A stretch of DNA of 64,000 nt from Cladocopium goreaui. Taxonomy: Eukaryota; Sar; Dinophyceae; Suessiales; Symbiodiniaceae. The position numbers were made by a program, and so were the translations under genes. The notes below the pieces were generated by a model. That model made no database searches. It was not told where the DNA came from and saw nothing but the letters and a program-made list of their open reading frames with translations. Below are positions 33,518-56,402 of the stretch, one piece after another (positions within the stretch are counted from its first letter, which is position 1; every line of letters begins with the position of its first letter). The stretch spans positions 1 to 64,000 of the forward strand of contig CAMXCT020002691.1 in NCBI GenBank assembly GCA_947184155.2, written 5' to 3'.

Positions 33518-33543
33518 TACCAAGAAGGATTGTTCAGCAACAT
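33518..33543 (+). repeat. left terminal inverted repeat, block 2
   Basis: TACCAAGAAGGAT-x3-TCAGCA-x-CAT. It pairs with the reverse complement of 56377-56402, 21/26 identical. Confidence 0.55.
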
Positions 33544-33660
33544 TATGTTGCCGGTGCCATGTATGAAGCCGGTGTCATGTATGTTGCCGGTGCCATTTTG
33601 CTTCCCCACCCCCCCTGTGACACCAGCATCATATATGTTGCCGGTGCCATGCTGGTTGTT
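33544..33660. repeat. left subterminal ATGTTGCCGGTGCCA cluster
   Basis: Motif copies near 33545, 33580 (both exact) and 33635, plus a variant near 33565. The copy at 33621-33649 is an imperfect palindrome (CACC...GGTG), identical to 56297-56325. Weak frames are open through it on both strands. Confidence 0.8.
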
Positions 33661-33784
33661 GGCAGTGTTGCTGGACAGCTGATCGCCCATGACACACATG
33701 CACCAAACTTGCAAGCAGAGCTGTTTTATGAACAGGTCATGCAGAAAATGCTGCATGTGGTAGAATTAAAGCCTCAATCGGAGA

Positions 33785-34110
33785 CCAATGATCCATGAGT
33801 GGGTTCGCTCTGCCATCCATCATTTTCTATCATTGAAACTTCCGCCACCGCCTTGTGCGGGACTAGATAGTGGTTATAAATATATAATCTCTGTGTGTGT
33901 GGGATATATATATATATATACATACTACATGTTATAGATATATATATATATATAATCTCTGTGTGTGTGGGAAATTGCGTCAAACCACAGATCAGCCGAG
34001 TCATAAACAGCAATTGCCAATCCCTGCGCCCAATAAAAATCTTCAACCCAAAAGACTTTCGAGGGAAACGGGGATATATATATATATATATATTCCTTTA
34101 AAATTGTTCA
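33785..34110 (-). other. region expected to hold the last exon of the block-2 gene
   Basis: The last clear exon ends in a good donor (ATCAG/GTGAAA at 34241), so a further exon should lie here. Candidates are 34000-34090 (minus frame KVFWVEDFYWAQGLAIAVYD, with an E-D-F like the block-1 last exon) and 33781-33860 (VPHKAVAEVSMIENDGWQSE to a stop). I cannot choose. Confidence 0.3.
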
Positions 34111-34240
34111 CCCATAAATATCGAAGTTGATGTTAACCAAGATTTCAAAGGGGTTTAAACAAATGGATCTGTTTAATCCTGGAGAACCATCCCATACCAT
34201 ACCCTTTAAACAATTCAGTTCTCGGATTTGTCTTTTTCAC

Positions 34241-34638
34241 CTGATCATTCCAGACCATCGAAGAGTAGCTGAAAGCGCATATCTGTACAACACATGTTTT
34301 GAAACATGCCTTGGGTGGGCTGCTAATGCCATTTTTTTTGTACGTCGGATCATGTCCTCATCTAAAAAATTGGACATGTATCGCAGGTTTTTCCTTTGGA
34401 AATCGTAGACCGCATGCTCCAAATAGTGGCCTTTTGGCCTAACATGCCATCTTGGCAGTCCAGCACCAATGGCCATGTCTACCAAATGGTTATGACTCGC
34501 TCGGTAACAGAGGTAGCTTTCTTCAAACTTGACCCATTCAGATTGAGTCAACCTCCTCGAACCTTCCAAACTGATGGTCTCCATTTCAGCAAGCCCACAT
34601 GCAGCACCAGCTCGGTACCTGGGTCCATGCAAGCCAGG
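34241..34638 (-). CDS. block-2 gene exon, RPKGH module
   Basis: Acceptor GGGATAG, donor ATCAG/GTGAAA. Reads GLHGPRYRAGAACGLAEMET, RRLTQSEWVKFEESYLCYRA, MAIGAGLPRWHVRPKGHYLE and a C-terminal MIRRTKKMALAAHPRHVSKH then VLYRYALSATLRW. It is preceded by a 46-nt intron that keeps the frame. The block-1 counterpart is split over several exons at 6.3-6.8 kb. Family unnamed; function unknown. One of the best exons in the window. Confidence 0.7.
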
Positions 34639-34684
34639 CTATCCCGGAAAATGATAATCTGGTTGATGGGGTAAAATGTGAAAC

Positions 34685-35097
34685 CTTTGCAAGCCAGTCA
34701 GTATCAAACCCACAAAAAAAACGTATAGGGTTCATGCTATTTGAAAGGTGCATGTCGGCATCCGTCCCATGGCTCATAGCGTAGTCTTTTGCAACATGTG
34801 CAAGCCAGAACAACATGTAGCGAGCACCAGTAGCATTGAGTCGTTTTTGAGACACTTCAACATAACCAGGAGCATCTGGGGTTAGTACTCCCACACTGAA
34901 AAGCTTCCTTTGGGCCCTGTCACTGATCTGGTTTTCCTCACACCAACCACGGTAATTCTCCCAAAGCACTTCCAGGCGTCGGTCCCTGGTGTTCCCAGAA
35001 ACATAGTCTTCGTTGTCAGTCCAATCCAGCAAGCACGAAATGATCACATCAGGTGCTATCGTAAGGTGCACCAAGTGCATTTGGTCCGGGAGTATTC
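34685..35097 (-). CDS. block-2 gene exon, HLVHL module
   Basis: Acceptor CGGCCCAG, donor GCAAAG/GTTTCA. Reads LPDQMHLVHLTIAPDVIISC, RLEVLWENYRGWCEENQISD, VSQKRLNATGARYMLFWLAH and a C-terminal NPIRFFCGFDTDWLAK. It matches the block-1 exons at 7.3-7.5 and 6.9-7.0 kb (CAMHVLNLG...; ARVCTAWLAQ) in layout. Confidence 0.7.
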
Positions 35098-35562
35098 CTG
35101 GGCCGTAGTGGAAAATGGTTTGCCTGCAGGCCTATATATTTTTGGTGTCCCGACCCAAGCTAACTTATCAGAATCTTTGTGTATAATAGAACGTTGCATC
35201 ATGCAAATACCAAATCAAAAGTGTAAATTTCGATTCAAAAATGCTATGTTTGGAAGAGCGTCTCCATGGGGTCCATCCGGGTATTCTGCATATGGGTGAC
35301 GGAGTGCTGATGTCCATCCATTCTTCTCTGGACACCAACCTAGAATTGCTTCATAAGAACAACATAAAAACAGAAAAGGCAGTTTGAAGATTCAGGCCGC
35401 CATATATGTTTGTTTTTTGGAGGACAATCCACATGTAAATTTATGAGAAAACCATATCAGAAACTTGTAAGAATTCTTACTGTATACTAGCCGGGAGCTC
35501 AACTTCTAATCAAATCTAGTTTTTCAGAAAGTTTATTAGTGATGAATTTGCAGACCATGTAG

Positions 35563-35690
35563 CGTTCTTCGATGGGCGGCTTCCCTCCCAAAATTTGTGT
35601 AGAGATATTCAGCACATTCTGGATTGTCACTCTCGTAGATCCAAGCCAGGGCCCGGCAATAATAGCAGCATTGCTGTTTGGAGTAGAAAC
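35563..35690 (-). CDS. block-2 gene exon, CCYYC module
   Basis: The minus frame after ATTTCCAAG reads FYSKQQCCYYCRALAWIYES, then CAEYLYTNFGREAAHRRTLH. Same slot as the block-1 exon with ICHACRASKNDYM. Confidence 0.6.
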
Positions 35691-35899
35691 CTTGGAAATC
35701 TGGCGGTGCGATTAATCTGTTTCTTATACATCTCATATATATATATACCTTGTTGTAACATCTACTCCTTGTGCAATGGCTCAAGAAAACAAGTGCTTAA
35801 TTGTGCGCTCTTTCGGGCTGGTACTCCTGTAAAACAGGTTAAAAAACAACTATATGACTTGGAAAAAATGGCTGGTACTTCCAGTTGAGGAACGGAAAG

Positions 35900-36061
35900 G
35901 TGTCATCATTGCCCTGATGTAGTCTTGATCGCCCTGGATCCCTTCCAAACAGCCAACAAAATCACCTGCGATCCGTGTGCCCCCCAGCTTCCAACGCTCC
36001 TTGCAGTAGGTAGCCGAAAATGGCACTCCCCATGGGTCATGAGTGGGAAAAATTCCAGTAC
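35900..36061 (-). CDS. block-2 gene exon, GCLEGIQGD module
   Basis: Opens after GGCTTCCCAG. Reads GIFPTHDPWGVPFSATYCKE, then AGDFVGCLEGIQGDQDYIRA. The 'G-C-x-E/D-G-x-Q-x-D' motif is, as I recall, a landmark of this dinoflagellate family. Confidence 0.6.
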
Positions 36062-36449
36062 CTGGGAAGCCACAAGGATCTGGAAAGTTTCTTGTGTCAA
36101 GGGTCCAGTAATAGTAAATTCCGCATAGGATGTATGGCAAATATATCTATAGAGTTCGAACTACGGGAAAATACATATGTAAAAAAAATCTTTGATGCCC
36201 AGAATAATAAAAGAAAAATCATATGTGGATAACAATAATTTCAATTTAAACTGGTGGTTGCAGCCCCCTCCAAAAAAAGAGTTGTAATGTATTTCCAAAA
36301 AAGTTGCCCAACGCTTCGAAACTCCAAGCAATGGTCTCCAGTATCTTGACTCTTGAATTTTCGTTGCAATAGGTCGCACTCATGCAAGACAACCTCATCA
36401 ATTGGTCAAAAAAAATGTTTCAGTGTAAAGAATCAAAAAAACCATTGAA

Positions 36450-36556
36450 GTGGTGTGCAGCTAGCACCCGAAGCCATGCAGCATGATCCGGGAATTCATC
36501 GTTGATGAGGAGGCCGCCAAGGGTAGAACCAAGCTGATCATCTCGAACTTCTGTTT
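36450..36556 (-). CDS. block-2 gene exon
   Basis: The minus frame reads VRDDQLGSTLGGLLINDEFP, then DHAAWLRVLAAHHFNG. Confidence 0.45.
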
Positions 36557-36799
36557 TCCTCAACGGTTGGATGTGTGTTTTGATTGAAACAGGAGATCAG
36601 ATTTTCGAGTTGGGTTTGACTCGGTAAAACCAGAACTGAGATAAATTTCCTTGGGTATATGTATGCTGGTATCCCGGATAATGCACGGATAATGCAAACA
36701 ACAATTATAATCATATGTTTTCAAATGTTTTTTGGGCAATCTTTTTGTGATATCCGGATGCGTTCCCTCAATTTACATTTGAGAGTTCCCTTTTATTCC

Positions 36800-36880
36800 A
36801 AGTATCTATGGCTTTCCGCACCATCCCCAAATATCCGAAGAGGAAGTACTTTGGCAGGATCGTTCGCCTCGTAATATTGC
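36800..36880 (-). CDS. block-2 gene exon, FGDG module
   Basis: The minus frame reads EANDPAKVLPLRIFGDGAES. It corresponds to HPLYIWGDDCQ in the block-1 exon at 8.7-9.0 kb. Confidence 0.45.
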
Positions 36881-36894
36881 CATATGGATAGACG

Positions 36895-37045
36895 ATATAA
36901 TTGATAGACAGACCCGCATGCATATAATAAACAAAGATAGATTGATTGGGTGATAGATTGGTAGATCGATAGGTCGATCGACCGATAGATCGATAGATAG
37001 ATCAGATAGATAGACCGATAGAATAGATAAGTATATTTGCGACTA
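36895..37045. repeat. (GATA)n-like tract
   Basis: Imperfect GATA/GATC repeats in an intron. Confidence 0.75.
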
Positions 37046-37244
37046 TATATATACATATGTAGGTCATGTAGGTCGATACATATACTGAAAATACATATAT
37101 CGAAAAGATATGGAGAAACAAAATGATGATTTAAATAGAGCCGATGGATATAAATATAAAATAAATATAAATAACATATATATATGTATAGCGATTTTTC
37201 TAAATTGTGTACAGGTTTGTTGTACTGTTATACCCCTCCCTTGC

Positions 37245-37376
37245 CTGAAGAATCGGGTGCTCGCGATACCAGGCAGTATCCATCTCATCGTGCCAGAATT
37301 TCGTCAATTCCTCAAACGGGGAATTGGGGGCTTGGAAAGAAATTTTGGGATTGGACATTGGTTGACTATTTGCAGG
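37245..37376 (-). CDS. block-2 gene exon with probable GC donor
   Basis: Acceptor GGATTGCAG, donor CTTCAG/GCAAGG. Reads SPFEELTKFWHDEMDTAWYR, then EHPILQ. GC-AG introns commonly start GCAAG, as here. Confidence 0.55.
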
Positions 37377-37499
37377 TCTGCAATCCTCTGGGGAAACCAC
37401 CAAAAGTAAATCAATATATCAGGATCGAATCCCCATAGGATGGGAAAAAACATTATATAAAAGATAGGATGGAACCAAAAGAAAACATATGAGATATGA

Positions 37500-37684
37500 T
37501 GACATCTTATCGAGCTGAGGTTCCCCAGGTTGACCGGTCAAACGGACCATCAAATCTACAGGGGCATATCGATAAAATGTTCCCACAATCTCGTGCGGTA
37601 AGAACATGCTGTGACTCCCTGTGCTCTCTCGGGGGCCCCAAGCATCATCGCAATATATTGGCACTGGAAACCTGAGCACAGCAT
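37500..37684 (-). CDS. block-2 gene exon, LPHE module
   Basis: Opens after TTTTTTCAG. Reads VLRFPVPIYCDDAWGPREST, then GSHSMFLPHEIVGTFYRYAP and VDLMVRLTGQPGEPQLDK. It corresponds to MVLPHELVPWLSRN in block 1. Confidence 0.6.
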
Positions 37685-38734
37685 CTGAAAAAAAATGCCG
37701 ATTTATTGTTTTCCAGTTTTGAATTTTAAATCAATAGGCATGTTCGGTTTAGACCTTATGCCAACAAGAGTCTGAAATGGCAATGGAAGGGCTTTTCCTC
37801 AGAGCATTTGGCAGCCAACATTGTTTGGACAACAAAGTAATAATGGATTTTGAAATCAATTAACAGCCATCGATCTATTTTTCTGTCTGGAATTGACTGA
37901 AACTGGTTTGTCTTGAAAGAACATTTAACCACCTCTATTTTAAAGACCAGGGATTGCCACCCAGCCGCGCCAAGGCTGGGAATGAGTCCACCGCTCAAGA
38001 ATCTGCCCGGACCCCCAAGAGTGCCCACGGGCCCGGCATCGGAGGGATTCGACCAGGGCGAGCACCGGTTCCCTGGGGCAAGGTAAAGGTCAGAAGTGAA
38101 AAGGTCAGAAGTGAACACAATAGAGGAACCATCCAATCAGAATTGAACATATCAATCAATAAAGTATACATGGGAATTTTCAAAAAGCTTTGCGACAATT
38201 TTGGGTGATCCATCCACTTAAGTCGGGCGGCGGTATCAAAGGGTGAGGAAGCTTCTCCAATCGGCCTTGCTGCGGGCAACATCTAAGGGATAAAATTTTC
38301 GATCTCGATTCATTTCAGATTCTTTCAAACCCCTCATAAAATTCCATATCGCAGTTTCAACCACAAGAATTTTTCATTTAGAACATGGGTGATCTGAACT
38401 GAAAAAACAAATGAGGGCTGGGCATAGAAGGGATTGGATCCGTTGCAGCTGGACCTGGCAGGGGGCTGGCTGCCGAATGTTTTAGTGGTCAATGTGGTGA
38501 ATCATGAATGCCCGATTTTAGAAACGATACATACATTAATGACTTTTATGTATATATATATATATTCATTTATTTATATTTATTTATTTACATATGATAT
38601 GTGTGCATAAAAATATATACTTGGGTTTGTCTGAATATGAACACCCCCTAACACTATGTATCATTTTTGGACATACAATTCTTTGTTCCATTTTCAGGCC
38701 AACCAGTATATATATATACAAAGAACAACATGGT

Positions 38735-38850
38735 AAGTGACCCGGCCTCTCCATCTCCCAACATTTCAAAGAATTCAGCCACCAAACCATGAATGGCTTG
38801 CTGCAAATCATTGGGATCATCTCTCCCGGAATTGGAAAAACTAGGCATTT
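38735..38850 (-). CDS. block-2 gene exon
   Basis: The minus frame reads FSNSGRDDPNDLQQAIHGLV, then AEFFEMLGDGEAGSL. Confidence 0.5.
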
Positions 38851-39118: not shown

Positions 39119-39152
39119 ATCATTTCACATTTCAAAAAAGGCTTCTAGAGAC

Positions 39153-39353
39153 CTTCATCGCCGCTATTCAGCTCCTCACCATCTAACTCCTCATCGTTCT
39201 CACCTTCTAAGTCATCATCAGCTGGCCATTCATCAGGCACATCCTCGTTCCCCCAAGTAGGAGCCACGGCCGCTTTGGGCTTGGCCTTCCCCTTGGCTTT
39301 GGCCTTCACACCCGCCTTTGCCTGCAAGGCCTTTTCGGCCTTTCGCTTCTCTG
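39153..39353 (-). CDS. block-2 gene exon, KAKGKAK then acidic
   Basis: Acceptor TATCGCAG, donor TGAAG/GTCTCT. A lysine-rich start (AGVKAKAKGKAKPKAAVA) is followed by an acidic run (EWPADDDLEGENDEELDGEE). It corresponds to the KAKGKAKAAPKAA exon of block 1. Confidence 0.6.
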
Positions 39354-39604
39354 CTGCGATACCTCAAATGGGCTGATGGCCGGGTCTTGCAGTGATCAAA
39401 CTGGGGTTGGAAGGATATGCCATATTAATACCGTTTCTGAGACATGTTTTTCTCCGTTTTTCTTGAACGCTTTCAACCCTAAAAAATCCAACTTGTAAGT
39501 ATATGGTTCATAATTGAGTAGCAGTGACTTTAATCTTAACTCATCCATTGCATGGGGTTGAGAGGGTTTTGACCAGGACACAGCTTACAAATGATTATTG
39601 TAGG

Positions 39605-39705
39605 GGGATTCAGCAAACTTGGTATGTTGAGAACCAGACGGCGATCATGGCTTTCCTTGATCCCTTCAGCTTCTTTGACTTGTTTTGCCGCCGTCTGCGT
39701 TGAGC
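39605..39705 (-). CDS. block-2 gene exon
   Basis: The minus frame after CTCAACGCAG reads TAAKQVKEAEGIKESHDRRL, then VLNIPSLL. A further short exon, LKAFKKNGEKHVSET before GTATTA, may lie at 39437-39490. Confidence 0.4.
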
Positions 39706-39854
39706 GGATACAATCCCAACTGCTCGAACTCTGATACATTCTGATACCACCATTATGAACTCTTCAAAATATAGATCTCTAGATATGCATTTGCTTGGGG
39801 TTATTGACCCACCACTGGAGCTAGAATTGAATGGGATATAGATTGGTAAAACCA

Positions 39855-40000
39855 AGATGTGTCAAAGCTATACGGGCCTCAAGAAAATCATCATGCTTGT
39901 CCAACGCAGCTTCGCACACTTCAAAGGACACCATTCTGAAGACATCATCAGATATCCTCAGTATGTGAGCACAGGTTTCTTCAAGCATAAGATCTAAAAA
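39855..40000 (-). CDS. block-2 gene exon
   Basis: The minus frame reads LEETCAHILRISDDVFRMVS, then FEVCEAALDKHDDFLEARIA. Helical by composition. Confidence 0.5.
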
Positions 40001-40024
40001 CCAATGTGGTCAAAAAATAACCAA

Positions 40025-40115
40025 CTTTGGGGCCCGAACTCTTTGCTGATCTGGTTCAGCTTGGCGAAGATATCCCGCAGGCTCCCAACTGTAGCCTCCA
40101 ATTGGAGTATGTCAA
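40025..40115 (-). CDS. block-2 gene exon, small helical
   Basis: The minus frame reads LQLEATVGSLRDIFAKLNQI, then SKEFGPQSW. Confidence 0.45.
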
Positions 40116-40280
40116 TGTATTATATATATATATACATGTTTATATATATATATATGTATGTATATATGTTTATATATATATATACATATATATATATCAT
40201 GCATATCATATTGATATATATATATATCATACCGAATGTATATATATATAAACATATATGGATGGTGTACACATGAAAAA
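40116..40280. repeat. (TA)n cluster
   Basis: Four (TA)n or (GTATA)n runs in one intron. Frames rich in I and Y on both strands are artefacts. Confidence 0.85.
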
Positions 40281-40289
40281 ATATATGCA

Positions 40290-40395
40290 TGAGGTCCAGC
40301 GCCTCCTGATGCGCAATCCCGCTGTTCGAGACAGCTTCAGCCACCGATCTAGCTTTCGTAGCCAGTTTTCCAACCCTCAGCCAAGGAATTCAACA
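40290..40395 (-). CDS. block-2 gene exon
   Basis: The minus frame reads LNSLAEGWKTGYESRSVAEA, then VSNSGIAHQEALDLM. Confidence 0.45.
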
Positions 40396-40489
40396 CCCAT
40401 TTGATTTCAATACAAGAGCAGGTATAGTCCAAAAGTAATGTATAGGAATTTCGACTTGTAGAATGATACACTGATTGTTAAGACATGAT

Positions 40490-40582
40490 AGCACTTAAGG
40501 ATTTCCATACTTCTTTTTGAGGGTGTGGCTTCTCCAGCTTTTCGCTGAAGTTCTTCTTTCGGATCTCTTCTGGGGATTTCAC
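40490..40582 (-). CDS. block-2 gene exon
   Basis: Opens after TTGGCAG. Reads VKSPEEIRKKNFSEKLEKPH, then PQKEVWKSLSAIM. Confidence 0.5.
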
Positions 40583-40857
40583 CTGCCAAGGAATGCAAAT
40601 CGTCATTGGGCCAATTTGGACGAAGGACTGGTCCATGGGTGGTTTAGGGGAAAATTGCATGACCAAAAAATACTTCAATTCAGATTTGTATGATGATCCT
40701 TTAAAAACGAAAAATCCAAAACCATATATAGTATAAAGTTTGTAATTATATATATATATATACCCATATATTATAGTTCACAAAACCCCTATTCACAAAC
40801 CCCAAAAGGATACAGGTTGGGCACCATGCAAACAGCTTTCTTCTCAGGTGGGCCTTG

Positions 40858-41471
40858 CGTTTCTTCTCGGGAGGTTCTCCGCTCTTGGTCTTCCCTTTGC
40901 CTTTTCCTTTCCCAACCACAGTCGGTTCTGGGGCCCCCTTGCCCTTGCCAAAGTCCGAAGCGAACCCAGTTATGCCATCAACACAAGCCTGGACTGCGGC
41001 CTTGTTGGCCGGGACATTCCCCTTCCCTGACAAACGATTCCCAACACGCTGTAAGTTCTTCGTGGTGTCGGTGGTCTGCCGGTAAATCCAGTAAAGCCTC
41101 ATTTCCGGGTTCGAGGGATCTTGGGGGTGCTCACGTCCAGACTGTTTTCCAACAACTTGGTTTTCTAGGAAGGCCTTTTCCTCAGGTGAGGTGAACTGCT
41201 TGCGTAGGGTCGAAAGAGGCAATTCGGCCCACTGACTGCTGTCCTCATGTTCGGCTTGGTTGACGTACTCTGCTTCTATCTGGATACTTCCGAGGCACTG
41301 GGGGTCCAACATAAATGCCTGGAGGAATTTGAATTTCGATTGTTGGTCATGACATGCCTGCCATTTCTGGATCAGGCCAGGCCTTAATCCAGGTTGAGCA
41401 AGTCGCCTTCGAAAAGCTTCCCGCTGACGTTTGCGTTCGTCTGCAGGTAGGTCCTCAATGCTGGTCATGGC
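40858..41471 (-). CDS. block-2 gene exon, ERKRQREAFRR domain
   Basis: Opens after GCTTGCCAG; the donor may be GC (CGCAAG/GCCCAC). It reads LPADERKRQREAFRRRLAQP, IQKWQACHDQQSKFKFLQAF, IEAEYVNQAEHEDSSQWAEL, PLSTLRKQFTSPEEKAFLEN, and a C-terminal VGKGKGKGKTKSGEPPEKKR. This arrangement (ERxxQRxxFRR, K-F-x-F-L-x-x-F-M-L-D, ELPLxxLRKxF, then HPQD) is one I associate with many dinoflagellate gene models; the family has no known function. The upstream exons at 41656-41710 and 41790-41898 are likely the 5' end. Confidence 0.65.
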
Positions 41472-41655
41472 CTGGCAAGCAAAAACACGCGATATGAAAA
41501 CTATGGGTCAAACTATGCTACACTTTTCGATGATGCCGCTAAAACAAATAATCATTCCCGTCCAGAAAGTTTTTCTATTCTTCAAGTGTATGTTTATTTT
41601 GGAAGTTTGTTTTTGCAAAAATGGATTGGCAAAAATACTTGGTTGGTCCACCTTG

Positions 41656-41710
41656 ATTCGCTCGGCATCCTCCGCAGTCAGTGTCTTGACCTTAGCAGTC
41701 CCAAACATCA
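41656..41710 (-). CDS. block-2 gene exon, small
   Basis: The minus frame reads TAKVKTLTAEDAERIK and ends at ATCAAG/GTGGAC. Confidence 0.45.
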
Positions 41711-41789
41711 TCTATACAGTTTTTTTTGTGGTCACATAATGTTCCACATGTAAATATACTGTATATGTATACATATATATATATGCTAG

Positions 41790-41898
41790 CTGAGACCCCA
41801 GCCCTCCGGGTTTTCCCATCCCCAAGACGTTCCATGTCCACATCACCAGAACCATCGCTCATGACACTGGTGCTTCGGCGCACGAGGGCCGGCCTCAT
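41790..41898 (-). CDS. block-2 gene, possible first exon with start codon
   Basis: ATG 41898-41896 opens MRPALVRRSTSVMSDGSGDV, then DMERLGDGKTRRAGVS. If this is a true start, the gene runs 41898 to about 34 kb on the minus strand. It could also be an internal exon after a GCAG upstream. Confidence 0.45.
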
Positions 41899-42225
41899 GA
41901 TCGATGCAGGTTGTTTTAAGATGATTGTTTGTTAACAAAAAACGACTTGAAAAACAGAAGTGGTTGTAAAATGAGTTGGGCACACACACACACACTATAT
42001 ATATATTGCATGCCAGTATAATGAGTATGTGCTATCATTAAAAAAAGCACTGGGTAAACTTGGAAGAAACAACTTTGAGAATCCAACCGTTCACCCGCTT
42101 CAGCACCTGCATGCAGGAGATCTCAAATATTATCGGTCGCAAAAGTCTCATGGATGTCCCAACAAAAATGAAGCATTGTGTAAAGAGGGTTTCAGAAATC
42201 TAACTTTGAAAAGATGAAATTAAAT

Positions 42226-42806
42226 CCCCAGCCTTCCAAAGCCAGTTTCCGTTTGCAGTCTGGTGTGAGTCCAGTCGTCGAGTCCGAAGCAACTGAAGGG
42301 CTGGGTGTAGACGGGGTCCCACTTTCCCTGGACGGCGGAGACTCAGTACTGGCAAGTGACAGTGTAGAAGAAGCATCCTTTCTCTCAAACTTCTTCCAAT
42401 ACTCCTTGTAGGCCTCTGGGTTTTTGGGGGGTGGAAACTCCGAGGCTGTGGTCTCTTCTTTCACCGGGGCTGCTGGGGCTGGTGCAGGAATCGATTTCTT
42501 GGTTTCCGAAATTTCCCATTTCTTCAGCCACATGTCGAACTTGAGAACATCCTCCATAGGCTTAGCTCCAAAAGCATGATTCCCCATGGAAGCCCAAAGG
42601 TCTCTCTCGAAGATTGGGAAATATGTGTGGGCACGTGCGGTTTCAACTGCGTTCTCCAAAAGATGGTAAGGTGCCCTGCTAAGCCAATGTTTGACTTTCC
42701 TCTCATGGTCGTCCATAAGTTTGGTGGCTGATACGTCCTTGTCCTCTTCCATCAAAACACCATTGCCACTGGCAAGAGTTGGCGGCAGCTTGTCCTGCGG
42801 AGAAGG
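42226..42806 (-). CDS. block-2 exon, SPP-rich tail
   Basis: Opens after AAATATCAG. Reads DDHERKVKHWLSRAPYHLLE, NAVETARAHTYFPIFERDLW, then an A/P-rich linker, a short EAYKEYWKKFERK segment and an S/T/P-rich tail. The acidic/basic composition suggests a partly disordered protein. The repeated 'FERDL' and 'KFERK' elements have no domain I know. Confidence 0.6.
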
Positions 42807-43029: not shown

Positions 43030-43071
<42 letters not shown>

Positions 43072-43220: not shown

Positions 43221-44615
43221 TCACAACTGTATACAGTCCTTTGAGTCGTCAGGATTGGGGGGGGTGTGGTCCCATGTCTCTGTGGCAGATCCCTTGCTCC
43301 CAGAACTTGTTGGGCCATCATCACCCACATTGGTCTTACCCTTGCCCGTCTCGTCGGTGGAGCCCTTGTAACCCTTGGTCACATCAGTCTTGCCCTTGGC
43401 ATAGTCCATGTTGTTCTTGCCCTTGGCATACTCAGTCTTGCCCTTGGAGAAATCACCCGACTTGGAACTGTAGCCCTTATAACCCTTGCTGTGATAGCCC
43501 ATCTTGTCCTGGTTGGCCTCGGTGTCGGCAGATCCACTGGACTTACCGGAACATTTTCCAACATTCCCACATTTGCTCTTACCCTTTCCCATCTCGTCGG
43601 TGGAGCCCTTGTAACCCTTGGTCACGTCGGTCTTGCCCTTGGCATAGTCCGGGTTGTTCTTGCCCTTGGCATACTCAGTCTTGCCCTTGGAGAAATCCCC
43701 CGACTTGGAATGGTAGCCCTTGGTGATATGGTTGCCCTTGGTCTCAGTGTCGTCATTCCCAGAATTCTGGTCCACATGACCCTTTTCCTTCCCAATTGAC
43801 TCATCGCAACTGCTTCCAACATCCCCACATTTTGTCTTTCCCTTTCCCATCTCTTCGGTGGAGCCCTTGTTGTAACCCTTGGTCACGTCGGTCTTGCCCT
43901 TGACAAAGTCCGTGTTGTTCTTGCCCTTGGCATACTCAGTTTTGCCGTAGCCCTTGGTGTTGTAGCCACTTGCGTGGTCACCCATGGTCTCAGTGTTGTC
44001 ATTCCCAGAAGTCTGGTCCACATGACCCTTTCCCTCATTTCCGCAACTGTTTCCAACCACCCCACATTTGGCCTTACCTTTTCCCATCTCTTCGGTGGAG
44101 CCCTTGTTGTAACCCTTGGTCACGTCGGCCTTGCCCTTGACATAGTCCGTGTTGTTCTTGCCCTTGGCATACTCAGTCTTGCCCTTGGAAAAATCCCCCG
44201 ACTTGGAACTATGATAACCCTTGGCATGATCACCTTTGGTCCCAGTCTTTTCATCAGCAGGTCCAGTTGACTTACCGGAACTTTTCCCAACATCGACACC
44301 ACTCGACTTGCCCTTCATGTCACCATGGCCTTTGTAACCCTTGGTTGGGTCGGTCTTGCCCTTGGTATAGCCACTGGAAATGTCAGGCTTGCCCTTGGCA
44401 CCCTTGTAGCTAACATCCACTATGCTATCATGATTGGGATCGGAGGATTTGCCGATGTGGGACGACTTGCTGGCACCCTTGGGTTTACCACCAAAGGGGT
44501 CACTTGTGTGGGTCTTGCCTCCCCCCTCAACGGTCACAGCTTTGCCTTTCATGAAGTCTGATTTCGACTTCCCCTTGGAAAGGTCACCTTTTGCTAGAGC
44601 GTAGCTGCTGGCCAT
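43221..44615 (-). CDS. tandem-repeat KGK protein
   Basis: About 460 codons open on the minus strand. The likely start is ATG near 44615 (GGCATGGCC), and the stop is at 43221. After a short N-terminus (MASSYALAKGDLSKGKSKSD), it holds about five imperfect repeats of roughly 60-75 residues. Each carries GDFSKGKTEYAKGKNN, then a KGK(T/A)DVTKGY core, then GKGK(T/A)KCG. Short KGK steps recur every 8-11 residues. The whole is basic, glycine-rich and probably unfolded, with one Cys per repeat. Regular lysines suggest binding to nucleic acid or polyanions. Repeat copies differ at synonymous sites, so the frame seems maintained. The antisense frames are shadows. Confidence 0.65.
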   Translation of the reverse strand: MASSYALAKGDLSKGKSKSDFMKGKAVTVEGGGKTHTSDPFGGKPKGASKSSHIGKSSDPNHDSIVDVSYKGAKGKPDISSGYTKGKTDPTKGYKGHGDMKGKSSGVDVGKSSGKSTGPADEKTGTKGDHAKGYHSSKSGDFSKGKTEYAKGKNNTDYVKGKADVTKGYNKGSTEEMGKGKAKCGVVGNSCGNEGKGHVDQTSGNDNTETMGDHASGYNTKGYGKTEYAKGKNNTDFVKGKTDVTKGYNKGSTEEMGKGKTKCGDVGSSCDESIGKEKGHVDQNSGNDDTETKGNHITKGYHSKSGDFSKGKTEYAKGKNNPDYAKGKTDVTKGYKGSTDEMGKGKSKCGNVGKCSGKSSGSADTEANQDKMGYHSKGYKGYSSKSGDFSKGKTEYAKGKNNMDYAKGKTDVTKGYKGSTDETGKGKTNVGDDGPTSSGSKGSATETWDHTPPNPDDSKDCIQL

Positions 44616-45055: not shown

Positions 45056-45070
45056 TTTTTTGTTTGTTTC

Positions 45071-45665: not shown

Positions 45666-46496
45666 ACTTCGTGGCAATTCGTGGCATTTCGTGTGCTACA
45701 TGATCATTCTGGCTCATATGGTTTGTATATGACAAGCCTGCGAATTTAAAACAAATCAATGAGCACGTGGTTTTATCCCCATGTAAGTCAGTGCAGTTGA
45801 CCTGCATCGATCAGATCTCCGGGCCTAACATGACATCACCTTAGCAACAAGTCTTATGTGATTTATCTTTAAAAGGCTTTGAGAATCCCAGCAACGATAT
45901 GTTCTCAGTGATGCCAAGCCCAGAAGGTAAATTAAGGTTCGCTAAAAATGGTTTAAATGATGCTTTCCAGCCCGCTGTCACTGGAATCATCGCCCACATC
46001 TTGAAAGCGCATTCCCTGGTCAGGAATTGGCTGTTGATCTTCCCTCTTCACCGACTGCATGTGCTCAGCAAGAACCTCACCCACCTTGGCTGCATGGGGG
46101 CAGGTATAGATCTCGAAAGGGTGTAATATGATATTCTATATATAAATATATTATAAATTATTATATAATATTTTCAATATATATACAATACATGTATGCG
46201 AATATATTCCTAAATAAATAAATGCACAAAGATATAGACAGATATCTTTAGTATTTTTGTGATTACTCTGATGTCCGATTGGCATATGAGCCAGAAGTAA
46301 ATCAAGATGATGATGGCTGTAAAAGGTTTCCTTATATAAACCGAAAAAGTAATCCAGAACACGAGGCTTATAATATATGGGTTGGTTTTGGGCTCCCCTC
46401 TAAAACTTCAAGAAATCCACTATATATATTGGATGGGGGTTTCAAAAATAATCATTTTTTGAAGCACAAGTTCAAGGCAAAATTCCTTACCCATCA

Positions 46497-46575
46497 TCTT
46501 AAACCAAGCGACGCGGATACCCAGGTTTCCCGGGTATTGTTGGGTGGACCGGAGGTGCTTCCCACCAATCTTGGG
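46497..46575 (-). CDS. PC/IEQP-family gene (block 2), 3' exon
   Basis: The minus frame reads PKIGGKHLRSTQQYPGNLGI, then RVAWF. The 'L-R/K-S-T-Q-x-Y-P' motif is, as I recall, the usual end of the family whose main exon lies at 47.5-48.0 kb. Confidence 0.55.
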
Positions 46576-46804
46576 GATCTGTAGGGTACAATTGTTAAAG
46601 CTGAAATTGAAAGACAGTAATTACAAACATCAGATGAATAGACTGTGCGACACTTTGTCGTGAATGGACTGACAGCCCCGACATAGATATATTTGTAAAC
46701 CAAAATAAATCCACTATAAATCTGGGTGTATCCAACCTTTTAAGCAATGATATATACGAAGTTTTCAGATTTAGTTGTAACCCCATTTGCTAACAATTTA
46801 CTTG

Positions 46805-46930
46805 ACAGGGTGATCCCCCATGTCTGAGTATCTTACAACCCGTTTCCGTCCAGCACGATCCAAGTAAGTACGCGCAATGTTCAGCTTCAAGAAGGAGCGA
46901 ATGCGTCGGAGTTGTTGCCTGTATGCCGGG
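46805..46930 (-). CDS. PC/IEQP-family gene (block 2), middle exon
   Basis: The minus frame reads LHPAYRQQLRRIRSFLKLNI, then ARTYLDRAGRKRVVRYSDMG. Basic. It corresponds to the block-1 exon at 20.25-20.40 kb. Confidence 0.5.
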
Positions 46931-47510
46931 TGTAAACCCCATGGGCGCAAAAAAACAAATGAGCGGAAGTGAAGGTTTTTCCTGTTTCTTGGAAGTGTTT
47001 GACATGAAACTTCAATTTGGAACAAAACCATATCATTTTTGTACAAAAATGTGGGAGCACCACTGCACCCATGCAATCACCTCCTGAACCTGAATGGCGT
47101 GATATCCACAAGGTTTTCCAAGAAAGGTGCAGTTCCATAAAGAATCACCTCAGATTTGGGCTGGTGAATAATATGTATCAACCAGACCTGGGAGTATATA
47201 TAAGGATATATATATAATATATAGGAAAGGGATTGTAGATTACAACTTTAACTGATTGGCTATTTGGTGGGTTTGGCCACTTGAAAGATAACATAATGTG
47301 GGTATATAATAAAAACCAAATCTGTAGAAAACATGGATATTTGTCATCAGTGCTGATGGGTTGCTGGCTTCAATGTAGGTGCAAAATACCCTCCAAGGGA
47401 GCATTGGCCCATACGTGCTCCATGACGTAGCAGGAGCTTCTTAGTTGGGCAGTCCAAATATAGGGCAGTTAGTGAGGGTGAAATTATTTTCATGGAAACC
47501 TATATATGCT

Positions 47511-48000
47511 TCACCCAAAGTTCCGGTTTATCAAAGGGTTACCAAAATCTTGTGAACAGGGTTCCACCAAAAGAATATCCAAAAAGATGCAAGGATCTTT
47601 CAGAGGCTTGTATTGAAATAACAGGCTGCTCTGGGGCTGCTCAATAATGTAGAATACCTTTTTGCGGAAGCACAGCTCCAACCTAGCAATTTGAGAGATG
47701 CCTATGACTGCATTGCCTTTGGATACAACTGTGACTTTGCAGGCGTTTCTTTGGCAGCATTTTAAACCCTGATTAAGAGACTGACATCTAACAAAGCCTG
47801 CGGGCAAGACGGTTGCCGATCTGTGTGCAGCGTTTTTCGCTCCACCCCTGTGGCCGTAGATACGACCGCATGGATGAACCCATACTCCTAAGTTTCGCAT
47901 ATATGGTTGTACAACGAAAACTCTTTGAATGCAAAGCAATCTGAATAAACCAAGTGTCATCCATACCCAGCTGCTGCATGGAATGGCGAACCATGCGCAT
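47511..48000 (-). CDS. PC/IEQP-family gene (block 2), main exons
   Basis: Two overlapping minus frames, 47788-48000 (MVRHSMQQLGMDDTWFIQIA) and 47511-47960, share this stretch. The second ends with GISQIARLELCFRKKVFYII, then EQPQSSLLFQYKPLKD. The IEQP element matches LIENPGNSK of block 1 at 20.8 kb. The PC element is not visible in frame, so this copy may be broken or split by an intron I did not place. Confidence 0.45.
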
Positions 48001-48595
48001 CCACTTTGTTTCAGGTGGCGAATCTCAGCCAGTTACATGGGGCACCAATCAATGGAAGTTTAAACATTGTCCAGTGCATCTTTGGTATTTTTAGTATCCA
48101 CTGCCACCAGAGTAACATAATTCAGGCACAATAAGAAACCAAAGCTGGACAGGAGGTTCATCTTCCGACTGTAGTCAACCTTGGGTGAAGTTTGCACTAG
48201 CCAGGGCCACCCAAACTAACAAGTTTTCCCATGGTTAAAAAGTTTATGACCATGTGCATATGATGACCTTATGTCTTTAAACACGGTTGCAGTCATGGTA
48301 CATCAAAAGCTCGGCTCTTCAGGCCTGCAAGTTGAACTCCACTGTGAAGAATATGTTGTCCTGCTAGCTGGGCAAAATAGGCACCATTTAGGAGAACACA
48401 TAAACCCCAAACAATTTTTTAGCTAAGCATCACAGACTTTCTACGGGGCAATTTTTGATGAACTATTGATAAGCTATACTCATATCAAAGCAACCCCCAA
48501 AGCCCGATCAAACCTGCACAGATCTCGCAGAAGTCAGTGATCTGCGAAGGGTCGCCAACTTCACCCAAACCTTAGTCAAGGTGGGTATATATAAC

Positions 48596-48770
48596 TAATC
48601 TGTCTATCTATCTATCTATCTATCCATCTATCTTTCCATCTATCTTTCCATCTATCTATCTATCTATCTATCTATCTAGCCGTCTATCTATTTGTCTATC
48701 TATCTGTCTATCTGTCTATATATATATATGTATACCTACTTATCCGTCTATCTACTTATCTACATTCGGG
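48596..48770. repeat. (CTAT)n tract
   Basis: CTAT/CTGT runs, opposite in sense to the GATA tract at 36.9 kb. Confidence 0.85.
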
Positions 48771-48784
48771 TAACCATTTTTGTT

Positions 48785-49240
48785 TGTAGTGGTAAAGACA
48801 ATTTGTAGCCATTATTTTTTGGATCCTGTATTTTAATTTGCCAAGGGGCTCTTCACGAGAATGGTAAGAATCACCGCGAGCTTGGAGTATTGCATTTTGG
48901 GTTCCACGTGCTGGGGGAACTTTGATCCAGATCTGAGGAATGTGGTGAACACCAACATCAAGTTCACTTATGCGCTGGACATCAACATCAAGTTCACTTA
49001 TGTTATGGACATCAACATCAAGTTCACTTATGCTGTGGACATCATCAAACTGGAGAGCAGGACTGCCGGATTCTCCAAACAAACATAGGAGGGTCACTCC
49101 ATTCTGATGAGATTCGGTTTTGTTTTCCATGTGCATTCGCAACACGAGATACCATGTTGTGATCGGATCAGCCTTGCTGATCCTCACCCCCGACACAATT
49201 GGCCGCACAGGCCCCACAAACACAATTTGTATGCGTGTGG
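48785..49240 (-). CDS. block-2 exon with three ISELDV repeats
   Basis: The minus frame reads ISKADPITTWYLVLRMHMEN, then three 9-residue repeats of the type V-x-x-ISELDVD (48.95-49.04 kb), then PARGTQNAILQARGDSYHSR. The repeat is a 27-bp tandem at DNA level, and the frame stays open through it. Confidence 0.5.
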
Positions 49241-49719
49241 ATTCACACACACACACCTTGGAACGAAAGATGTTGAAAAATCTATTGCAGCCTAGGTGAA
49301 CCTCCTGCGTTTTTGTTCTGTTGGGGTCATGGATTCCACGATCGCACGGCGTTCGTCACTGATACGCCACCTAGCCGGGAAAAATATTGATCAGAAAAAA
49401 TCTTGAACAGGGCCAAACCCAACCTTTTTATGAGCTGTGTGAACTTCAGAAACTGTGAGGGCACCTGTCCTCCCTTTGCCTGGCCGTCAAGCCCTCTCCG
49501 GAATCCAACCTAGGCCACCAAGTGTTGCGTACTGTTCAAGGAATTGTATATCTGAAAACATAGGGGCCCTATACATCATAAAATATCGGCCAATGAGCAT
49601 TTGGAGAAACATAATTTGTACGATAGGTTGGACCAAACAGATGATGCGGCATTTTCATGGGTCAACAACAACTTGCATGTCTATTTGTTTCCACATGGAG
49701 TAAAGAACGAAAGATATAC

Positions 49720-50040
49720 CATCTTCTTTTAACTGGCCTAGAAACAAGGTCTGCAAGTACGCCGCTTTGGCCATAGCATAAGGTGTTTTCGCCTTCGTGG
49801 CAGCCTTCCCTTTTCCACGGCCCTTGCCTTTGGTGCTCTTGGTACCCTTGGCACCCTTGCCCCGACCTTTGGATCCTTTTCCTTTACCTTTAGATCCCTC
49901 GGCTTTGGCTGGAGCGCGAGATTCCTTGCGCGCAGCCACCAGGAGACGCTGGCTGTGTGGAGTAATGGGCTTCTGCTTCCCAAAGACGCGCGTGAGGACC
50001 ACTGGAGGGATTGAAGAAACTGGTGCTTTCACCTCCAAAT
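49720..50040 (-). CDS. block-2 exon, KGKGK-rich
   Basis: Opens after TAATTTGGAG, donor AAGATG/GTATAT. Reads VKAPVSSIPPVVLTRVFGKQ, then a run of KGKGKGSKGRGKGAKG, then AKTPYAMAKAAYLQTLFLGQ. The basic middle would bind nucleic acid or polyanions by charge. Confidence 0.6.
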
Positions 50041-50289
50041 TAAATTCTGCCTTGGTTCATACAAGTACTTTTTGATTTGAAACCCAGTTAAATCACACGA
50101 CATGAGGTGAATTGAATTTTCAGTTGAAATTGCAATCAAGTGGCTGGGCGGGCAGTAGATCGTTCTTTCGATGTGTCCTATGTTTACACTATACATATAT
50201 ATATATATATGTGTGTGTGTACAAAGAAACCGGTGGTTATGACAATCTTAAGTTCAATTCCTGGGTGCGAAAGCCTTTTGGGATATTGG

Positions 50290-51881: not shown

Positions 51882-51944
51882 CTGCATGGCACATAAATTA
51901 TATATAAGATATATATGTTTCAAAAGACATGGAAGTTCTAACTA

Positions 51945-52235: not shown

Positions 52236-52432
52236 ATTGGACAATTGGGTATATATATATATATATATATGTATATGATTTTTTGGTTGCCAAATGGTAC
52301 CACACCTTCAACACAAATGCAAACCATTCAGGAATGTTCAATATTGTTGTTGATTATCAAGGGGTTTGGGAAACATTGTCCAACAATGAAAAATATGATT
52401 TGCATGGTATCAACACAAGTGTTCATTCTTTC

Positions 52433-53547
52433 ATTCAAGGAACAAACTGCCTGGTCCATGATGGCTTCCAGTTCGTCGGAGAAATCCTCTTGTTCATGTC
52501 CTTCCAAGTCCTCTCTAAAGTCCCACCCATAGTTGTCGCCCCAAGCATCACCTGTCCCCGCAAAGTCACCCCACGCAGAATCACCAGCGTAGGGCTCGCC
52601 TGTGTGGGTTTCAACATGGTCCTTCAGGTCATGGCTCTGGAGGTCATGGTCCCACATAGGGTCCTTCAGGTCGTGGTCCCCCTCCATCAGGTCATGGTCC
52701 CCCATAGGGTCCTTCAGGTCATGGTCCCCCTCCTTCAGGTCATGGTCCCCCATAGGGTCTTTCAGGTCATGGTCCCCCATAGGTTCATCACCTTCGGTTT
52801 CCGACTCTAATTCCTCAAAGTCATAAATTGCACGGCGAACTTCAAGGGGGAATTGGTTTCTGGCAGGGGTGAATTTGAGCTCATTCTGGCCAACGAAGTC
52901 GATCAAGAAACCCCCTCCAAGAACAGAGCAATTCCACCAATCGGGGTTTGAAACCATCACCTGTTCCAAATCCTTCTGCCATGTTTTGGAAAAGGACACA
53001 GTTCCCACCACTTCTGTTTGGCAAAAACCATGAGTGTTGTCTATGACAGCTCTAGTGGTCTCTGGGCCATTGGGGTAAAGCTCGGAGTCACCAAGTTGGT
53101 TGTCCGGAGGCATTGGAGTTTCACCAAGGTAGGTAACAGACTCATCGGCTTCCCAAGACCCTTGGCCAGTTTCCACCAACCACATGGCGAAATCTTGCAT
53201 GTCAGCCAATGGGTCCCCCTCAGCGTCACCCCAAACATAATCCTCAACTTGATCCAAACCATAGTAACTCTTGTGGAGCCATTTGATAAACGAAGAGAAA
53301 TCTGGATGGTTTCGGGCCCTTTCAACTTCGTCAAGACAACATGGTTGGCCTTCACCGTCCATTCCCAAGGTTTCATCCCTGGATAAATTCCAGTAATCCA
53401 ACTTCGGGGTCTCGTCATCATCAAGAGTAGTCGGGGCAGGGCTTGCAAAGGTAGTTTGATTCCAAGTATGCCAGCATGAACCAGGAGATGCTGTGGTAGA
53501 GGCTTCCCATTCCTTTTCTGTTTTTGGATCCGACCACCAAAAAAATC
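52433..53547 (-). CDS. block-2 large acidic exon with GDHDLKDPM repeats
   Basis: The minus frame is open for about 370 codons, opening after TTCAACAAG. It starts with a W/S/T-rich part (DPKTEKEWEASTTASPGSCW), then a mixed part (SSFIKWLHKSYYGLDQVEDY; NPDWWNCSVLGGGFLIDF). Then come five or six imperfect copies of GDHDLKDPM or GDHDLKE at about 52625-52785, then a D/E/W-rich end (WGDFAGTGDAWGDNYGWDF). Strongly acidic. The 3' limit is uncertain. It lies in the same row as the W-rich micro-exons and is probably part of the same protein. Plus-strand frames here are shadows. Confidence 0.65.
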
Positions 53548-54389: not shown

Positions 54390-54485
54390 TGCCCACCAAA
54401 CCCAGACACTCGCCAGCGTACGGTCCCGGAGCATCATCCAAGGCTTCGGGGTTTTCATAGGGCCTGCGCACGGCCAAATCTGAAG
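54390..54485 (-). CDS. block-2 exon
   Basis: Opens after GTCCTTCAG. Reads DLAVRRPYENPEALDDAPGP, then YAGECLGLVG. Confidence 0.45.
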
Positions 54486-54759
54486 GACGGAACCTGTGGG
54501 TTGATCGTTATATTATATACTTGATGCACTTATATTTTGAAGTATATATACATATATTTATTCATATAATGTGTTACATCTATGTAGGGATAAATATTAT
54601 ATGTATGCATGCCTGAATGTAATTTCTATAGTGTGCAAATAAATGGTAAGGATACACTTGTAAAATGTCAGTCCACCAAGATATTTGGTGCATGCCGGGG
54701 ATTCCAAAAAATAATTGTGAAAACACATTGACAGTGACAAAAGACATTTTAGAGACAAC

Positions 54760-54818
54760 ATGTGCCACCCTCGCCTCCATTCGGACTCATCATAGACATC
54801 ATAGGGCAAGCCATCCTG
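54760..54818 (-). CDS. W-rich micro-exon
   Basis: Opens after TGCTTGCAG. Reads DGLPYDVYDESEWRRGWHML. Confidence 0.5.
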
Positions 54819-55179
54819 CAAGCACATTGAAAAGCTGGAACCACTCGATCCAATCGAGGTTAAGAAAACAATTTGTGTTTTTGGTAGGGAAGCACTATCT
54901 TCATGGATGGCCGAAGGATTTCAACATTTAAAACAAGGGGCAGCTGCAGTCAAAAAATAATATGGGGTCTAAAGCTTCAAAGGTTGGTCAGCAACTACCT
55001 CTGTGGGACTGCAATGGACAATATCGTCATGCCGGAATTCATGGAACAAAGGGCCTTCGGCTACGAAGGGTTTTGGTGCCCATGATGGGGGTGAGCTCCT
55101 GTATTGGGGAGAAGCTGAACAGGAAATGCGAAAAAAATCAAACGGATTCACGCAAATGGATTTCAAAAGCCAAATCCGA

Positions 55180-55638
55180 AAAAACTCACAGAGCTGGAAC
55201 GACAGCCCGGCCTCAACGGGCAGAGTGTCCTCCCAATCCATGAGCTTTGACTGGTGGTAAGCCCAGAAGCGCAGGCTGGCTCCACTATTTTTTCGGGCCC
55301 TCTGAGCCAATTTCATCACCATTTTAGCTTGTGACTCCACCCAAAGATTTTGGGGTAAACCCACAAACGGCACCACCACGTCAGGTTTCTTCAACAGTAA
55401 CTGAACCCCTTTTCGGCATGCAGCCAAAGTAAAAATTTTTTTGCCACCACCAACATCAGCTGCCCACTGAAAAGCTTTTCGGGCTGCACTATGTTTCAAA
55501 GAGGTTCCGGGGCTAACGGACGCAGTTCTCCTCATACGTACCCCTTCATCTGGGAGAAAACAATGCCTATAGAGGGCATCCGCAATGTAGGCACCCTTTG
55601 CTAGCAAGGCCGCCCCATCTATTTCCATGGCTTATACC
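55180..55638 (-). CDS. block-2 most upstream exon
   Basis: ATG 55628 opens MEIDGAALLAKGAYIADALY, then RHCFLPDEGVRMRRTASVSP, GGGKKIFTLAACRKGVQLLL, KPDVVVPFVGLPQNLWVESQ and FWAYHQSKLMDWEDTLPVEA. The donor is probably GCTCT/GTGAGT near 55189. It may be the true first exon, or may follow a pyrimidine-rich acceptor (GTATAAG). No domain recognised, but the sequence looks like a folded domain. Confidence 0.55.
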
Positions 55639-55929
55639 CCCGGAAAAAAAAACCTCCATCGAGCCAGTACAGCGCGCAGGACTGAGAGATCCCGATTGAT
55701 TGATCGATGACTTGCTGGTGGAAAAAATGGCCAGAACTGGCTAGTGCAACTGTTGACACTGGTGTTTTCCAACTAACAGTTTTGGGATTTGTACCCAACC
55801 GATCAGTATATAGGGCTTCTATATGGGTTACTTTTGGGGTTAATATGGAACATATCAAGTATGGGGGATTACCGGAAAATGAGGTGTACCAATAAAGTTT
55901 CCCATTTAGAAGCCATCGGTGTTCCATGT

Positions 55930-56254
55930 TTAAACAGACCCGTATAATGCATCAATAAAAACAGAATCCTGTGTTACGTATAATGAAGCCATAACACCCC
56001 AAATGCTAGCACACATAAGTTCAACAGGAACATACATAACACATACAACTATATATATATATATATGTGTGTATATATATATGTGTATATATATATATAT
56101 ATATATACCTATAATATATATATATGTGTGTGTGTATGAGTGCTTTTCCAAAGCTCAAACAAGCCTGGCAATTCTTGCGAGGCCATGTTTGCAAAGCTGG
56201 CATGATGAGCAGGTCATATCATATACCATGCCTGAGAAGCATGCTGTCAGCAGC
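55930..56254. other. (TA)n and (GT)n flank inside the right end of block 2
   Basis: Mostly (TA)n/(TGTG)n at 56047-56140. No exon is seen. GA(A/G)CAGGTCAT occurs here (near 56208) and at the left end (near 33729). Confidence 0.5.
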
Positions 56255-56376
56255 ATCATAATGTTGCCGGTGCCAGTTGTTAAGCTGGGTCAGTGGCACC
56301 AGCATCATATATGTTGCCGGTGCCAGTTGGGTGTGGGTGGGTGGATGCATACTATCATATGATGCCGGTGCCTCCT
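56255..56376. repeat. right subterminal ATGTTGCCGGTGCCA cluster
   Basis: Motif copies near 56263 and 56310, plus a variant near 56360. 56297-56325 is identical to 33621-33649. Confidence 0.8.
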
Positions 56377-56402
56377 ATGATGCTGATTGATCCTTCCTGG
56401 TA
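56377..56402 (-). repeat. right terminal inverted repeat, block 2
   Basis: The minus strand reads TACCAGGAAGGATCAATCAG, then CATCAT, against TACCAAGAAGGATTGTTCAG, then CAACAT at the left end. Confidence 0.55.

What the first reader, a model, noticed from the sequence alone, without database searches (positions are those of the whole stretch)
33518..56402. A 22.9-kb intron-rich block bounded by terminal inverted repeats and matching subterminal motif clusters
Seen: the two ends match as inverted repeats (TACCA-x-GAAGGAT-x3-TCAGCA-x-CAT, 21/26). Just inside both are clusters of ATGTTGCCGGTGCCA, including a 29-base identity (33621-33649 and 56297-56325). The flanking 8-mers GGCCTGAC and AGCCTCAC agree at 6 of 8. 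Everything inside is on one strand and differs in composition from both flanks. Established: TIRs, subterminal motif arrays and an 8-bp target duplication are the layout of hAT-like DNA transposons. Inference: a giant cargo-bearing, intron-bearing mobile element, or a remnant moved by transposase in trans.
Basis: partly seen in the sequence, partly recalled or inferred. Interest (0 to 1): 0.88.

Follow-up and report, generated by a model that had tools for sequence, protein, structure and literature searches.

The report
Giant multi-gene DNA transposon in dinoflagellate
A 22.9-kb block in what looks like a dinoflagellate genome is a real, recently moved jumping element that carries its own likely transposase gene and a disguised relative of DNA-methylating enzymes, both split by introns.

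Summary
The block is a mobile element. A second copy, C2112, matches it end to end (36 mismatches) and stops exactly at the terminal repeats. Ten copies of 21.2-24.1 kb were located in the 1.17-Gb assembly; nine were read throughout. Element proper: 33520-56400, termini CCA..TGG. The target duplication is 2 bp, not 8: 8 of 10 copies have equal flanking dinucleotides, and two insertions have uninterrupted empty sites. This removes hAT. Forty modelled minus-strand exons in at least five coding blocks recur in the same order in the diverged copies (33-37 of 40), with few replacement changes. One gene has the D, D, C(2)C, H(3)H, E layout of the CACTA-to-Transib (CMCT) transposases, but no Pfam model hits it and the structure prediction of a relative failed. 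Another, invisible to Pfam, has relatives predicted to have the C5-cytosine-methyltransferase fold. Fixed subterminal motifs and a central TGACACG array recur in all nine copies read. Best reading: an autonomous CMCT-like cut-and-paste element, a new variant of a known kind. That the one protein transposes and the other methylates is inferred, not shown.

The parts
33520..56400 (-). Whole element, 22,881 bp; recognised exons on the minus strand
   Evidence: End-to-end alignment with C2112 stopping at the TIRs; collinear exons in the diverged copies
33518..33519 (.). TA, left copy of the 2-bp target duplication
   Evidence: 2-bp length shown by the empty site of C2112
56401..56402 (.). TA, right copy of the 2-bp target duplication
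33520..33543 (+). Left terminal inverted repeat CCAAGAAGGAT...
   Evidence: 21/26 match including TA; CCA start in all ten copies
56377..56400 (-). Right terminal inverted repeat
33550..33648 (+). Left subterminal array GCCGGTGCC at element offsets 30, 48, 66 (and 120)
   Evidence: Offsets 30, 48 and 66 in 9 of 9 copies read, at most 1 mismatch
56266..56372 (+). Right subterminal array of GCCGGTGCC-like sites, with a fixed site 37 bp from the end; one site (56295) is inverted
   Evidence: -37 in 9 of 9 copies read (two rows print -36 because their end was set 1 bp short, corrected) and in the tenth
34237..38848 (-). Gene E: transposase-like gene, 15 modelled exons; D1 FGDGAES, D2 GDQDY, C(2)C, DxMH, H(3)H, E in LDED; start set by eye
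   Evidence: homologues
39145..42788 (-). Gene(s) D: conserved coding block, 9 modelled exons, stop after NSGDEGL; start and splitting uncertain; no known domain
43221..44615 (-). Gene C: repetitive Lys/Gly-rich reading frame
   Evidence: no Pfam match
44788..45656 (-). Central array: TGACACGnnn decamers (45072-45656), then two 136-bp units with the reverse motif (44788-45043)
45953..50050 (-). Gene B: C5-cytosine-methyltransferase-like gene, 13 modelled exons; motifs PC (IV) and EQP (VI)
   Evidence: fold of a relative
52331..53545 (-). Coding block A2 (may be part of gene A)
55212..55628 (-). Gene A, first exon, 139 codons, no known domain

Best explanation
A low-copy, recently active, probably autonomous giant cut-and-paste DNA transposon. 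Shown: precise insertion of a 21-24 kb unit with inverted termini CCA..TGG and a 2-bp target duplication at many sites, two of them with empty sites. [quoted passage not shown] an element-encoded protein reads the phased GCCGGTGCC sites next to the ends, as accessory proteins do in En/Spm (recalled). Gene B is inferred to be a DNA cytosine methyltransferase acting on element or host DNA, perhaps on the CpG-bearing central TGACACG array, as self-regulation. Introns kept in the copies fit movement as DNA, not through an RNA copy.
Against: No Pfam model hits the gene E proteins tested at E <= 10 beyond weak, unrelated matches (P0001-P0003 and P0006) nor the window exons at E <= 0.1; the AlphaFold model of relative P0002 failed (pLDDT 46), so the DDE fold is unproven. 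Termini are CCA..TGG, not the CA..TG usual for the clade. C84 and C5693 have unequal flanks (TA/AA, AA/TA). Close pairs show no constraint: changes there are few and mostly replacing (B window-C2112 4 against 0, A C6109-C6126 4 against 1, E C84-C861 3 against 1). Codon tests used preselected conserved blocks, which lowers dN. Gene models lack transcripts: E has one frame break and one weak exon, two B exons run into a stop at their edge, one D exon lacks an AG acceptor. Foldseek TM-scores for the gene B relative are modest, 0.29-0.41 by query length in the 50 rows shown.
Confidence: 0.85

Rival explanations
1. A hAT-like element with 8-bp target duplication.
For: Inverted termini and subterminal motif arrays; the flanking 8-mers of the window agree at 6 of 8.
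Against: C2112 has no 8-bp match; 8 of 10 copies have equal dinucleotides; two empty sites carry the dinucleotide once.
Confidence: 0.01
2. Segmental duplication of a host gene cluster, with chance inverted ends.
For: The exons look like ordinary intron-rich dinoflagellate genes.
Against: Alignment stops at the termini in unrelated flanks; target duplications; empty sites; fixed subterminal motif positions.
Confidence: 0.01
3. A mobile element moved in trans by another element; gene E is a domesticated or accessory protein, not the transposase.
For: Gene E has no profile hit and no usable structure model; copies of gene E outside the element were never counted, as that search did not complete.
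Against: CMCT motif layout in 9 of 9 copies read and constraint among diverged copies. Of 16 genome-wide matches to the left subterminal pattern ten are ends of 21-24 kb elements, so no crowd of short derivatives with such ends was seen.
Confidence: 0.1
4. An endogenised virus or Polinton-like element.
For: Length 21-24 kb with inverted termini.
Against: 2-bp target duplication; no viral hallmark in the nine larger element frames scanned with Pfam (only a subthreshold MFD_D3 match at E 0.086); 40 modelled exons; no confirmed gene B relative in viral contigs.
Confidence: 0.02

Closest known systems
CMCT clade of DNA transposons (EnSpm/CACTA, Mirage, Chapaev, Transib, Plavaka, ESTA, Lanisha; PMC12730594, passages seen)
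   Same: C(2)C and H(3)H between second D and last E, by motif; 2-bp duplication within the 2-5 bp given for the clade
   Different: Termini CCA..TGG instead of the usual CA..TG; no profile hit; 21-24 kb, at least five coding blocks, 40 modelled exons
Animal CACTA-type 'TRC' elements such as SmTRC1 (PMC1636069, passages seen)
   Same: 2-bp duplications, C-rich first bases, core of their motif I and a relaxed form (DxMHxxxL) of their box A
   Different: 4.5 kb (S. mansoni) and 9.2 kb (A. aegypti); CCC termini; Transposase_21 domain detectable there, not here
Enlarged EnSpm elements of the red alga Chondrus crispus, 16-20 kb with 4-5 ORFs (cited in PMC6431247, passage seen; primary work not seen)
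   Same: Giant multi-gene cut-and-paste elements of an alga
   Different: Sequences not compared; the passage names no methyltransferase
DNMT-bearing retrotransposons SymbioLINE-Dnmt and SymbioDIRS-Dnmt3 (PMC5890265, passages seen)
   Same: Mobile elements of Symbiodinium that carry a cytosine methyltransferase
   Different: Retrotransposons with an enzyme counted by PF00145; here a TIR DNA element with a family that Pfam misses
Fungal DNA transposons encoding TET/JBP dioxygenases (PMC12730594, passages seen)
   Same: DNA transposons carrying a cytosine-modification enzyme
   Different: An oxidase acting on 5mC there, a predicted methyltransferase here

Membership tests
hAT superfamily | 8-bp target duplication (5-7 bp in some lineages, PMC12730594) | tested here: not met
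   2 bp in 8 of 10 copies and in two empty sites
CMCT clade | C(2)C and H(3-4)H motifs between second D and last E | tested here: met
   Pattern in 9 of 9 copies read; residues assigned by motif only, patterns written from these sequences
CMCT clade | 2-5 bp target duplication | tested here: met
   2 bp in 8 of 10 copies
CMCT clade | Termini 5'-CA..TG-3' (stated for most cases, not all) | tested here: not met
   CCA..TGG in ten of ten copies
CMCT clade | Transposase homology or RNase H-like fold | tested here: inconclusive
   No related Pfam match, best PDB sequence match E 1.5, model too poor
CACTA/EnSpm proper | CACTA core at the termini | tested here: not met
   Termini CCA(A/G)..
CACTA/EnSpm proper | Transposase_21 domain | tested here: inconclusive
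   No Pfam match to it in the pieces scanned; HMMER filters drop weak matches
[quoted passage not shown]
   GCCGGTGCC sites near both ends, mostly direct, some inverted
C5-cytosine methyltransferases (gene B) | C5-methyltransferase fold | tested here: met
C5-cytosine methyltransferases (gene B) | Catalytic PC (motif IV) and Glu of motif VI | tested here: met
   Invariant in 9 of 9 database relatives; PC in 9 of 9 element copies, IEQP found by pattern in 7 of 9, not in C936 and C2575
C5-cytosine methyltransferases (gene B) | Match to Pfam DNA_methylase PF00145 | tested here: not met
   Joined exons at E <= 10; P0011 and P0014 at E <= 0.01; no precomputed domain on 9 of 9 relatives
C5-cytosine methyltransferases (gene B) | Methylates cytosine in DNA | not testable with these tools
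   Needs a biochemical test
Polinton/Maverick | Protein-primed PolB, integrase, packaging ATPase and protease genes | tested here: inconclusive
   No match in nine larger element frames; not every exon was scanned

The most novel reading that the evidence does not exclude
A previously unrecognised lineage of giant, intron-rich DNA transposons of dinoflagellates that carries its own cytosine methyltransferase, of a family missed by standard profiles, and a central CpG-bearing array (TGACACG, about one site per 11-13 bp in five of nine copies, sparser in four) on which that enzyme or another element protein acts: a self-methylating cut-and-paste element.
Probability: 0.4. Interest if true: 0.88.

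Novelty: new variant of a known kind. Interest (0 to 1): 0.76.

Why it matters
It shows that a 23-kb block of ordinary-looking, intron-rich genes can be one recently mobile unit. If gene B is active, it adds a DNA transposon to the mobile carriers of a cytosine methyltransferase, which in Symbiodinium were described as retrotransposons (PMC5890265, passages seen), and points to a methyltransferase family that counts based on PF00145 would miss. The near-identical young copies make excision, insertion and methylation directly testable.

Tried and rejected
8-bp duplication and hAT: rejected by copies and empty sites. Structure of the transposase: the model of P0002 with exon fragments failed and was not searched. 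PDB search with its profile: three unrelated matches, best E 1.5. A second homologue search with genes D and E joined found nothing among 7,996 candidates scored, so fused gene models were not seen. Viral contigs for gene B: three pattern matches, none confirmed. Counting gene E across the genome: not completed.

C84 (TA/AA) and C5693 (AA/TA): C5693 and C861 share 2.5 kb of right flank at 98.7%, so these near-identical 21-kb copies were probably swapped by recombination or by the assembler; not resolved. Partial left-end matches at C4334 and C436 (42 bp) were not followed. Of 16 matches, nine are the known copies, one is the new copy C6197 and six look like GC-rich repeats (by eye); the reversed control gave 48, so the pattern alone is not specific. 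In some searches the right ends of C84, C861 or C5693 were set 1-2 bp off; one search corrects them.

Papers: passages only of PMC5890265, PMC1636069, PMC6431247, PMC12730594, PMC8978399; others only as listings. In eight searches of one open-access library I saw no listing, by title and start of abstract, of a giant CACTA-like element in dinoflagellates: 11 of 11 papers listed; 5 of 5; 20 of 30; 15 of 1,125; 15 of 32; 15 of 235; 12 of 614; 8 of 48. This does not show that none is in print.
Full report
What was checked. The ends match as described: 21 of 26 as inverted repeats, five exact ATGTTGCCGGTGCCA copies all close to the ends, and a 29-base identity. Such an inverted match alone is found for 14 of 1,101 random 26-mers kept from 1,500 drawn, so copies elsewhere were needed.

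Copies. The window lies in a 1,165,616,438-base assembly. A search with the left 211 bases gave 13 matches: nine places with a left end, the window included, and four matches of 42-46 bases around the shared 29-base unit. One place, C2112, aligns with the window from 33518 to 56402 and stops exactly there; about 3 kb of window flank on each side finds nothing in about 2 kb of C2112 flank. A global alignment of the two counts 36 mismatches and 225 gap columns; local alignments count more mismatches because they overlap in the tandem arrays. The right-end search found the same two right ends, the C2112 match ending at 56402, and two left-end cross matches. The other seven copies were read in full: 21,221 to 24,126 bp. 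A pattern of the left subterminal sites located a tenth, C6197:59392-82390, of which only the ends were read.

Target duplication. With ends at CCA..TGG the flanking dinucleotides are equal in 8 of 10: window TA, C2112 TA, C861 TA, C6109 TG, C6126 TT, C936 GA, C2575 CA, C6197 AA. C84 (TA/AA) and C5693 (AA/TA) differ; C5693 and C861 share their right flank. C2112 and C936 sit in the same satellite, which holds uninterrupted units: 81 of 82 for C2112 with TA once, best 77 of 82 for C936 with GA once.

Inside. Conserved frames were sought on the minus strand in four diverged copies and joined by a model that allowed only AG acceptors and GT, GC or GA donors and favoured AGG, so the splice pattern is partly built in. 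The model has 40 exons in six groups (A, A2, B, C, D, E) and flaws: in E one frame break and one weak exon, in B two exons that run into a stop at their edge, in D one exon without AG. Both strands were then compared: in the seven diverged copies 33 to 37 of 40 exons match in place, all successive pairs are in order, the minus strand is better for 33-36 and the plus strand for 0 or 1; C2112 is too similar to tell strands apart.

Selection. In preselected blocks, window against diverged copies: gene A dN/dS 0.10-0.17, B 0.11 (the one pair with computable dS), A2 0.15-0.21; for D and E synonymous sites are saturated (E, window vs C6109: 242 of 1,286 nonsynonymous against 286 of 349 synonymous sites changed). 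The window and C2112 are identical in the A, A2 and E blocks and differ by 4 replacing changes in B and 1 in D, none silent. Close pairs show no constraint, with few changes: A C6109-C6126 4 replacing to 1 silent, E C84-C861 3 to 1, E C84-C5693 3 to 2. Stops: one codon in D in pairs with C84, none in the other pairs.

Gene E. Six database proteins are homologous, one labelled symbB (Breviolum minutum, recalled) and one named Cladocopium goreaui. With the GC/GA donors this makes the host a dinoflagellate, probably Symbiodiniaceae; an inference, no call names it. The order D1 (FGDGAES), D2 (GDQDY/F), C(2)C (CCYYC), DxMH, H(3)H and E (LDED) stands in 9 of 9 copies read. PMC12730594 gives C(2)C and H(3-4)H between second D and last E for the CMCT clade, with 2-5 bp duplications. 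PMC1636069 gives a hydrophobic-xx-DG motif and a DxMHxxxLG motif for CACTA-type elements: the first core is in P0002, P0003 and five of five copies typed, but P0006 misses it; the second, relaxed, is in five of six database proteins and five of five copies typed, and in its strict form only in P0006. In 53,176 background residues the cores occur once and twice. No profile or structure confirms the fold.

Non-coding signals. GCCGGTGCC (at most one mismatch) stands at offsets 30, 48 and 66 from the left end and 37 from the right end in all nine copies read, and at -37 in the tenth. Between genes B and C each of the nine has an array of TGACACG or its reverse: 62 to 94 sites in five copies (window, C2112, C6109, C6126, C936), 19 to 26 in four (C84, C861, C5693, C2575), against 2 in the 41,115 bases of the window outside the element. 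Its role is unknown; binding by an element protein or methylation is a guess.

Judgement. The mobile element is shown. That it is autonomous and CMCT-like is likely but rests on motifs and constraint. That gene B methylates DNA is plausible from fold and motifs only.

Noticed in passing
window 2310-3458 (+): Intronless reading frame with a standard C5-methyltransferase domain, PF00145 at E 2e-25, outside the element.
   Followed up: partly
window 20713-21228 (-): Reading frame with LPCNSHTF and IENPGNS, by eye like gene B, outside the element; no Pfam match.
   Followed up: no
G000 C2112 and C936 flanks: Two insertions lie in the same satellite array with a unit of roughly 400 bp.
   Followed up: partly
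G000 C84, C861, C5693: Near-identical copies with mixed flanks: C861 and C5693 share the right flank; recombination or assembly swap.
   Followed up: partly
G000 C4334:660301-660342 and C436:61246-61287: Short 89% matches around the 29-base subterminal unit, perhaps ends of further elements.
   Followed up: no
window 795-1562 (+): Reading frame that by eye resembles a hAT dimerisation region; no Pfam match.
   Followed up: partly
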